NCBI GenBank assembly: GCA_021806235.1
Contig: JAJZXU010000022.1
Coordinates: 76,606 to 120,423 of the forward strand
From: Thermoplasmata archaeon
Lineage (GTDB): Archaea > Thermoplasmatota > Thermoplasmata > Thermoplasmatales > Thermoplasmataceae
Direction of reading: 5' to 3'
Length of the DNA stretch: 43,818 nucleotides
The stretch's first letter is position 1; each line of letters starts with the position of its first letter. This document shows positions 7,420 through 9,026 of this stretch, one piece after another. The notes beneath the pieces are model-generated. The model was not told where the DNA came from. It saw nothing but the letters and a program-made list of their open reading frames with translations, and ran no database searches. The translations under genes were made by a program, and so were the position numbers.

Positions 7420-7884
7420 TCACCTGTCCGTTTCATGCTTTATTTTTTTCTGCAGTGTCATTATTCCATACGTCAATGCCTGCGGCGACGGTGGACATCC
7501 AGGAATATAAACATCTACAGGAACTACCTTATCAACACCCATAACTACGGAATAACCATCAACGTATGGTCCTCCCTGAATTACACACACACCCATTGCA
7601 ATTACATATTTCGGGTATGGCATTTCCTCATAAACCCTTTTTACCCTCGGTGCCATCCTTTTTGTCGTTGTTCCGGCCACTATCATTAAATCAGACTGTC
7701 TTGGAGAATTACGGAATATTTCACTTCCGAATCTGGCGATATCCAGATCTGCTGCCTGTGTGGCCATCATTTCTATTGCACAGCATGCTAATCCCATTGT
7801 TAATGGCCATAATGAGTTGGCACTTCCCCATTCAAGTGCTTTTTCAATAGTTGTTGTTTTTATCCCCAGATCTCCATTTTTCAT
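7420..7884 (-). CDS. nuoB: NADH-quinone oxidoreductase subunit B (N2 cluster subunit)
   Basis: This 154-residue subunit holds cluster N2, the last iron-sulfur cluster before quinone. All four ligands are present: Cys34 and Cys35 ([10 protein letters not shown]), Cys100 (AMGVC) and Cys130 (PGCPPSP). The ATG overlaps the TGA of the upstream IscB-like frame (TGATG), and a GGAGG motif inside the end of that frame supplies the ribosome-binding site. The inserted element has thus left nuoB with a usable, possibly coupled, start. Confidence 0.97.
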
Positions 7885-8519
7885 CAGGTCGCCTCCAAAG
7901 CTCTACACCTCTTTATGGATGAGAGGAATTGAAGATTAAATTTCAACCCCTTGCCATACCTTCTTAGCCTTACCTTTCTTACACTTACATCCATATTTTT
8001 TCCCTCTTTTTTAATAATTACACTTTTTCCAACGTTATGAATTCCCATTACGTTCCACTCCTCTTTCTGGAAGAGAACAGTATCCCCCGATTGCAATGAA
8101 TACCTCCTCTGTATAGAGGGTTTAAAGCCCTTCCTGTTCAACTGCAGGCAGCGGTTATTCCTTCTTCTCTGGGAAACCATAAACAGTGATACTCTCTTCT
8201 GTGCTGATCCACCGGCTATGACAAAAGCGTCGTTTGCATGTGTTTTCTCTATCCCAAGTGCAATGCGATTCATCTTTGTTATGGATCCGGGTGTTGTTGG
8301 CATTAGTGGTTGGTTTCGCATGTTTAAAACGGGAACTCTCAGGTCCCGTACAGTCATGCCTGACTGTAGGTCCACATCGGGATTGTTAGAAGAGGTTTTT
8401 AAACCCGACACACTGAGAGTTTTCTCTCTGTTTAATGCATGGTCACAGCTGCCACAGGCTTGTGGAGCACCCGTGGGTGTGTATGTATTTCTCTTTCCTA
8501 ACTTCTGCTTTTCTTTCAT
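7884..8519 (-). CDS. Internally deleted IscB-like protein (PLMP motif fused to RuvC-III and C-terminal domain)
   Basis: IscB is the OMEGA nuclease related to the Cas9 ancestor. This 211-codon open frame shows its two ends but not its middle. Residues about 61-78 contain the N-terminal PLMP motif ([13 protein letters not shown]). From residue 79 the frame continues directly with [20 protein letters not shown], the RuvC-III region with its HxxDA motif, then a basic Arg-rich stretch and the C-terminal domain ([11 protein letters not shown] and onward). The bridge helix, RuvC-I, HNH and RuvC-II, some 300 residues, are absent, so it cannot be an active nuclease. The junction is near 8283-8291. IscB proteins normally start shortly before PLMP, so Met55 (8357) may be the real start and the upstream codons may be RNA. 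It lies in the nuo operon on the same strand and ends in TGATG with nuoB. Confidence 0.72.
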
Positions 8520-8590
8520 ATTTTCAAAGCCCCCTAATCAGCTCTTGCGTTGCCCTCACGGGACAAGCCCACGCCTTTAGTCGTGGGTAG
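7900..8590 (-). mobile_element. IS200/IS605-superfamily (IscB-type) element remnant inserted between nuoA and nuoB
   Basis: One end is the hairpin 8568-8587 with loop ACTAAAGG, a form common at IS605-type ends; the other is probably the weaker hairpin at 7908-7926 (CCTCT/AGAGG). No transposase gene lies inside. The nuoA frame now ends inside the left hairpin (TAA at 8577-8579), so its last five residues come from the element. The exact boundaries are inferred from hairpins and gene ends, as this superfamily makes no target duplication. Confidence 0.65.
8355..8590 (-). ncRNA. Candidate omega-RNA-like structured region upstream of the IscB remnant
   Basis: In IscB loci the omega RNA is encoded just upstream of the protein and takes its guide from the flanking DNA at the element's left end. 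This stretch holds a tandem series of hairpins: 8568-8587 (CCCACG stem), 8468-8479 (CACCC/GGGTG), 8452-8465 (CCACA/TGTGG), 8415-8428 (GAGAG/CTCTC) and 8350-8367 (ACAGTCA/TGACTGT), the last covering the alternative ATG at 8357. The guide would be the 3' end of nuoA. It may simply be transposon end DNA; the reading frame is also open through it. Confidence 0.4.
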
Positions 8591-9026
8591 TTGACCTCAT
8601 CCACCTCATATATCCCATTTTAAATGCGTAATAAACCGCAAATAATGGCATTGCAATAAACACTATTGTTTCTATAAATGGGTATAACCCGAGTTTATAA
8701 AAGTCAAATGCCCATGGCAGCAATAATAACATATCAATATCAAACAGTATAAATAAGAATATTATGGCATAGTACTGTACTGTTATATTACCTTCCTCAT
8801 ATTCCTTTGCAACCTCACCGCTTTCAAATGGATGCAGATATGAATCGTCCTTTGCAGGGGGATTGTTTTCTATTGATAAGTTTTCCCTGATATCCTCAGG
8901 CCTGAAACTTATTTTATGTTTTTTATACCTGTTTGGTGAAATTGATGGCAGAACCTTGAAGACTAAGTACAATGCAAGGCTCAAAATTATTATCGATATG
9001 GCTATAGCAATGTAACCTATTAACAT
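8577..9026 (-). CDS. nuoA: NADH-quinone oxidoreductase subunit A
   Basis: This 149-residue protein has three membrane helices and the NuoA core: a long first helix, then the acidic loop with HPFESGE, followed by helices carrying FLFILFDIDMLLLLPWAF. It is the first gene of the operon. The normal end is probably YMRWMR; the last five residues (STTHD) and the stop are read from the left hairpin of the inserted IscB-type element, a harmless-looking change of the C-terminus. A TATA element lies 27 bases before the ATG. Confidence 0.95.
   Translation of the reverse strand: MLIGYIAIAISIIILSLALYLVFKVLPSISPNRYKKHKISFRPEDIRENLSIENNPPAKDDSYLHPFESGEVAKEYEEGNITVQYYAIIFLFILFDIDMLLLLPWAFDFYKLGLYPFIETIVFIAMPLFAVYYAFKMGYMRWMRSTTHD

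What the first reader, a model, noticed from the sequence alone, without database searches (positions are those of the whole stretch)
8340..8590. Tandem hairpins before the IscB remnant: possible omega RNA with a nuoA-derived guide
Five hairpins follow one another from 8587 down to 8350 on the minus strand, where an IscB omega RNA would be. Because this RNA's guide comes from the DNA next to the left end, the guide here would be the nuoA 3' end. It would be made with every nuo transcript. One hairpin covers the alternative ATG at 8357, so RNA folding might also affect translation.
Basis: partly seen in the sequence, partly recalled or inferred. Interest (0 to 1): 0.6.

Follow-up and report, generated by a model that had tools for sequence, protein, structure and literature searches.

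The report
HEARO omega RNA beside deleted IscB
The hairpins are a genuine guide RNA of the HEARO/IscB type, carried by a small mobile element that landed exactly at the start codon of nuoB in an archaeal respiratory-chain operon; its guide copies the end of nuoA, its own IscB protein has lost the cutting domains, and a complete IscB elsewhere in the genome could use it.

Summary
The observation and the main interpretation hold. Window 8595-8366 (minus) matches Rfam HEARO RF02033, the IscB omega RNA family, over the whole model at 107.8 bits (gathering score 83). Twenty-one copies show strong covariation. The RNA is the left end of a 711-bp element (8595-7885) between nuoA and nuoB. Relatives without it read ...ATATGAGGTGGATGAR|ATGA, where ATGA is the overlapping nuoA stop and nuoB start. 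Guide plus ATGA is intact in eight relatives and broken by an element here and in one sister genome. So the guide is the nuoA 3' end, aimed at the empty allele. The protein keeps only PLMP, RuvC-III and the C-terminal region; RuvC-I, RuvC-II and HNH are deleted. A full-length IscB with intact motifs lies elsewhere in the genome. All eleven assessable right ends in this genome abut an ATGA or GTGA that starts a gene, with an element-encoded GGAG/GGGG about 7 nt upstream. This is a new, internally deleted member of a known kind. Use of the RNA in trans, and any role of the mini-IscB or the AUG hairpin, are inferred, not shown.

The parts
8366..8595 (-). HEARO / omega RNA scaffold; 8595 is also the left end of the element
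   Evidence: Rfam RF02033, model 1-211, 107.8 bits, gathering 83; copies share this left boundary; covariation
8596..8615 (-). Predicted guide (20 nt shown; real length unknown) GGATATATGAGGTGGATGAG = 3' end of nuoA
   Evidence: Flanks the element's left end; same sequence followed by ATGA at empty sites of relatives
8577..9026 (-). nuoA; last codons STTHD and the TAA stop are supplied by the element
   Evidence: NF005022 231 bits; in relatives the nuoA TGA overlaps the nuoB ATG
8530..8534 (-). GGGGG, possible ribosome site for ATG 8519; pairs with 8383-8379 in the omega RNA
7884..8519 (-). 211-aa open frame running from inside the omega RNA through the mini-IscB
   Evidence: no codon periodicity in the omega part
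8349..8368 (-). Hairpin over the alternative ATG at 8357
   Evidence: MFE of 51 nt, 8-bp stem, loop GGCA
7884..8357 (-). Mini-IscB (157 aa): PLMP motif, RuvC-III (HANDAF), C-terminal TAM-interacting region; RuvC-I, bridge helix, RuvC-II and HNH absent
   Evidence: NF040563 only 19.8-26.4 bits against cut-off 175
8286..8294 (-). Internal deletion junction (ACACC|CGGATCC), shared with copy C28 (L001)
7885..7934 (-). Right end of the element
   Evidence: alignment of copies and right-end profile
7892..7896 (-). GGAGG, element-encoded Shine-Dalgarno-like site 7 nt before nuoB ATG
7881..7884 (-). ATGA: target-adjacent motif and nuoB start codon
7420..7884 (-). nuoB
   Evidence: TIGR01957 232 bits

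Best explanation
Window 8595-7885 is a non-autonomous HEARO/IscB mobile element inserted in an archaeal nuo operon exactly between nuoA and the ATGA start of nuoB. Its omega RNA scaffold is intact. Read-through from the nuo promoter would make an RNA whose 5' guide is the nuoA 3' end. That RNA, loaded into a full-length IscB from another copy in the genome, would recognise alleles lacking the element (guide followed by ATGA) and not the filled allele (guide followed by GTCA), favouring retention of the element. The element's own protein has lost the nuclease core by an in-frame deletion. The element gives nuoA a new stop and nuoB a new ribosome site, so the operon can keep working. Shown: RNA family, boundaries, empty site, adjacent motif, deletion, an intact IscB elsewhere in the genome. 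Inferred: transcription, loading, cutting, operon function.
For: HEARO match 1-211; ten HEARO copies in this genome and none in six of the ten genus members searched; empty nuoA/nuoB sites in relatives; guide plus ATGA at 0-1 mismatch in eight relatives, and only the disrupted form plus one 3-mismatch site in this genome; empty sites for nine more of this genome's insertion sites, no target duplication and no loss; ATGA or GTGA as gene start at every assessable right end in this genome; full-length IscB L006 over the NCBIfam cut-off (379.7 bits against 175) with GIDPG, IEIAKFD, HNH and HANDAF motifs and PDB IscB matches near 1e-40; published IsrB TAM NTGA, active on ATGA (PMC9581776); covariation.
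Against: No RNA or cleavage data. The window protein cannot cut. Use of one copy's omega RNA by another copy's IscB is not demonstrated. The transposase that moves these elements was not identified: Y1 transposases occur in the genome, but their elements end in AGGATGTCAC rather than TAGTTGAC.
Confidence: 0.72

Rival explanations
1. The element is a decaying relic: its omega RNA still looks right because the insertion is young, but nothing uses it.
For: Nuclease core deleted in cis; other copies are further reduced (L008 frame broken; L009, L010 and L046 omega-RNA-only).
Against: 107.8 bits, third highest of the ten copies in this genome; most Rfam pairs kept; the core mini-IscB of L003 and L001 changes mostly at third codon positions (13, 9, 32; dN/dS 0.18), with the caveat of gene conversion.
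Confidence: 0.22
2. The mini-IscB and its omega RNA act together as a nuclease-less, RNA-guided DNA-binding or regulatory factor.
For: Deletion is in frame and the same in two copies; purifying signal on the remaining protein; a beta-rich C-terminal region (about residues 87-130) is predicted with fair confidence.
Against: Overall model is poor (pLDDT 52); the RuvC core and bridge helix are missing; the guide's only near-perfect target would be its own empty site; the tree does not make L003 and L001 sisters and recombination occurs among copies.
Confidence: 0.08
3. The hairpins are a nuo mRNA leader controlling nuoB or the ORF at ATG 8357, unrelated to IscB.
For: Location inside the operon; hairpin over ATG 8357; the GGGGG before ATG 8519 is paired in the RNA.
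Against: The same RNA lies in nine other places in this genome, before unrelated genes, and is absent from the nuo operon of most relatives.
Confidence: 0.02

Closest known systems
HEARO RNA / IscB omega RNA (Rfam RF02033)
   Same: Full model match, left-end position, guide taken from the 5' flank, IscB-type reading frame downstream
   Different: The adjacent IscB is deleted for RuvC-I, bridge helix, RuvC-II and HNH
IscB RNA-guided endonuclease (NCBIfam NF040563; OgeuIscB, TbaIscB structures)
   Same: PLMP motif, RuvC-III HANDAF and C-terminal region are about 80% identical to the full-length L006 copy
   Different: 157 aa against 418 aa; no nuclease core; far below the family cut-off
IsrB (DtIsrB)
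   Same: HNH-less IscB relative with TAM NTGA, which includes ATGA (PMC9581776)
   Different: IsrB keeps its RuvC nuclease and nicks DNA; the mini-IscB lacks RuvC-I and RuvC-II
Non-autonomous deletion derivatives of IS200/IS605-type elements
   Same: Ends kept, inside deleted, several sizes, no target duplication
   Different: These keep a full omega RNA, so they may still be served by a nuclease in trans

Membership tests
HEARO / IscB omega RNA | Covariance model match above curated threshold | tested here: met
   107.8 bits against 83, model 1-211
HEARO / IscB omega RNA | Lies at the element's left end, upstream of an IscB-type ORF on the same strand | tested here: met
HEARO / IscB omega RNA | Guide from the flank; target at the empty site followed by a TAM | tested here: met
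   Empty sites read guide|ATGA; that ATGA works as TAM for this IscB is not tested
HEARO / IscB omega RNA | Expressed and bound by an IscB | not testable with these tools
   No RNA or protein data
IscB nuclease (window protein) | RuvC-I D, RuvC-II E, HNH and RuvC-III H/D | tested here: not met
   Only RuvC-III present; NF040563 26.4 bits at most against 175
IscB nuclease (copy L006, same genome) | Family cut-off and catalytic motifs | tested here: met
   379.7 bits; GIDPG, IEIAKFD, HNH, HANDAF; PDB IscB matches
IsrB | Complete split RuvC without HNH | tested here: not met
   RuvC-I and RuvC-II deleted
IS200/IS605-type element | Precise insertion next to a short motif, without target duplication | tested here: met
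IS200/IS605-type element | Mobilised by a Y1 TnpA | tested here: inconclusive
   Y1 genes present in the genome; similar hairpin but different terminal sequence

The most novel reading that the evidence does not exclude
A 157-aa nuclease-less IscB (PLMP, RuvC-III, C-terminal domain), kept by purifying selection and moving with its own intact omega RNA, works as an RNA-guided DNA-binding or competitor protein at operon start codons.
Probability: 0.08. Interest if true: 0.75.

Novelty: new member of a known kind. Interest (0 to 1): 0.45.

Why it matters
It gives a natural test of whether an IscB can serve the omega RNAs of nuclease-dead relatives in trans, with guide, adjacent motif and empty target all readable from genomes. 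It also shows how such elements can live at the start codons of essential operon genes: every assessable copy in this genome sits directly before ATGA or GTGA and carries a ribosome-site-like sequence at its right end, while the upstream operon supplies transcription through the guide, which lies outside the element.

Tried and rejected
Folding energy of the single sequence: not decisive. Dual coding of the omega RNA: the frame in phase with IscB is open in nearly all copies but shows no codon periodicity (26, 25, 22 changes), so selection for a peptide is not supported. Y1 elements of the same genome as the mobiliser: hairpins alike, ends differ, left open. Translational coupling as a strict need: L009, L010 and L046 have no open frame to the right end, so the GGAGG alone may suffice. 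Sisterhood of the two mini-IscB copies: not supported by the C-terminal tree; the common deletion rests on the identical junction. Another genome with the same deletion: one candidate in G042 (L192) proved to be a full-length IscB. Structure model of the mini-IscB: mean pLDDT 52, so no fold search was made. Weinberg 2009 and Kapitonov 2015 are not held; that HEARO elements sit before ATGA or GTGA is, as far as I recall, already stated in Weinberg 2009 and could not be checked.

Full report
WHAT WAS CLAIMED. Tandem hairpins at 8587-8350 (minus) before an IscB remnant, possibly an omega RNA whose guide would be the nuoA 3' end.

THE RNA. An Rfam scan of the whole window gave one match: HEARO RF02033 at 8595-8366, minus, model positions 1-211, 107.8 bits against a gathering score of 83. 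HEARO is the RNA now called IscB omega RNA (PMC9755519). The named hairpins are its helices. In an alignment of 21 copies from this genome and relatives, 28 of 64 pairs have changes on both sides, against 13.9 in column shuffles and at most 15 when partners are slid. Folding energy of the exact RNA is not remarkable on its own (z = -0.66). One more hairpin, past the Rfam end, covers the ATG at 8357.

THE ELEMENT. The genome holds ten HEARO copies. Aligning them gives the left end GTCAACTACCC... at 8595 and the right end ...GGAGGCGACCTG at 7885, 711 bp here. The last codons of nuoA, STTHD and TAA, come from the element.

THE EMPTY SITE. nuoA was found in all ten genus members. Relatives read nuoA straight into nuoB as ATATGAGGTGGATGAR|ATGAAAA or a close variant, with the nuoA TGA overlapping the nuoB ATG. 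A search for guide plus ATGA found it at 0-1 mismatch in eight relatives; this genome and G005 hold only the form broken by an element (...GAG then GTCA), plus one site with 3 mismatches close to the motif. So the guide is the nuoA 3' end and its target is the allele without the element. The filled allele lacks ATGA after the guide and should be spared.

OTHER SITES. Ten further right ends in this genome also abut a start codon: rad50-like, recJ-like, leuS-like, NAD-kinase-like, glycosyltransferase-like, thiolase-like and others (names by eye from the sequence, not tested). Nine of these have an empty counterpart in G005, G004 or G009 reading flank|ATGA (in G004 leuS the start is shifted), with nothing gained or lost. 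L009 uses GTGA and its relative's gene starts differently, so its empty site is not clean. L017 is left out because its downstream frame is only 3 codons. Each right end carries GGAG or GGGG about 7 nt before the start codon. In this window ATGA occurs 602 times on both strands; 19 are predicted gene starts and 32 lie outside predicted genes, so landing on starts is not explained by the motif alone; selection against gene disruption explains part of it. The same layout recurs in other archaeal loci: the IscB stop overlaps an ATGA gene start (L088, L092, L043, L063, L067, L177), or a GTGA gene start follows about 60 nt on with GGGAG before it (L094, L095). Since the guide lies outside the element, its transcription must begin in flanking DNA, and a landing inside an operon supplies that; this is inference.

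THE PROTEIN. The frame from ATG 8357 encodes 157 aa: NQPLMPTTP joined to [27 protein letters not shown] and the C-terminal region. Against full-length L006 the deletion removes RuvC-I, the arginine-rich region, RuvC-II and HNH. NF040563 scores 19.8-26.4 bits against a cut-off of 175. L001 shares the exact junction (87% amino-acid identity). No other genome of the family showed it. L003 (the window copy) and L001 differ at 13, 9 and 32 first, second and third positions in the core, dN/dS 0.18 (binomial p about 8e-5). That would mean selection after the deletion, but L003, L001 and the near full-length L041 are not well resolved and copies recombine, so I treat it as a hint. The structure model is poor apart from a beta region near residues 87-130.

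A NUCLEASE IN TRANS. L006 (418 aa from the equivalent ATG) scores 379.7 bits for IscB, has GIDPG, IEIAKFD, the HNH motif and HANDAF, and matches solved IscBs. Two further copies (L002, L004) run off contig ends with GIDPG intact; their right halves appear to be L018 and L019, judged from matching empty-site flanks. IsrB, a relative, uses TAM NTGA and acts on ATGA (PMC9581776).

MECHANISM, WITH STATUS. Shown: RNA family, ends, deletion, empty target, motif, a complete IscB in the genome. Inferred: nuo read-through makes the guide RNA; IscB from another copy takes it; empty alleles are cut, as reported for TnpB elements (PMC11870625, abstract); nuoB is translated from the element's GGAGG.

VERDICT. 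The element is a new, internally deleted member of the HEARO/IscB kind.

Noticed in passing
L046 (G005) and L008 (this genome), recJ-like site: Both sister genomes carry an element at the same start codon, but L046 has an L010-type interior (98% over 65 nt) and an outer right end closest to L008 (91%): a mosaic that suggests gene conversion between copies.
   Followed up: partly
G005 contigs C22 and C4 (L048, L075), nuoA/nuoB junction: The sister genome has a different, L010-type element at exactly the same ATGA (94-97% to L010, about 83% to the window copy) although nuoA and nuoB are 95-98% identical.
   Followed up: partly
L009, L010, L046: 425-452 bp derivatives with omega RNA and right end but no IscB frame: guide-RNA-only mobile units.
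   Followed up: partly
8366-8519, and other copies: The frame in phase with IscB stays open through the omega RNA in nearly all copies, from an ATG with GGGGG before it, yet without codon periodicity.
   Followed up: partly
L041 (G005:C37), hisS-like start: Near full-length IscB with GIGPG in place of GIDPG and small in-frame deletions: probably RuvC-dead with HNH kept.
   Followed up: no
G000 contigs C26, C27, C2, C10 (L002, L004, L018, L019): Contigs end inside near-identical element copies, so two likely full-length IscB copies are missing from the assembly.
   Followed up: partly
L079-L086: Y1 transposase loci in this genome, five of them with the hairpin AAGCCCACGGCTTTAGTCGTGGG or a close variant, like the HEARO left-end hairpin but with a different terminus.
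   Followed up: partly
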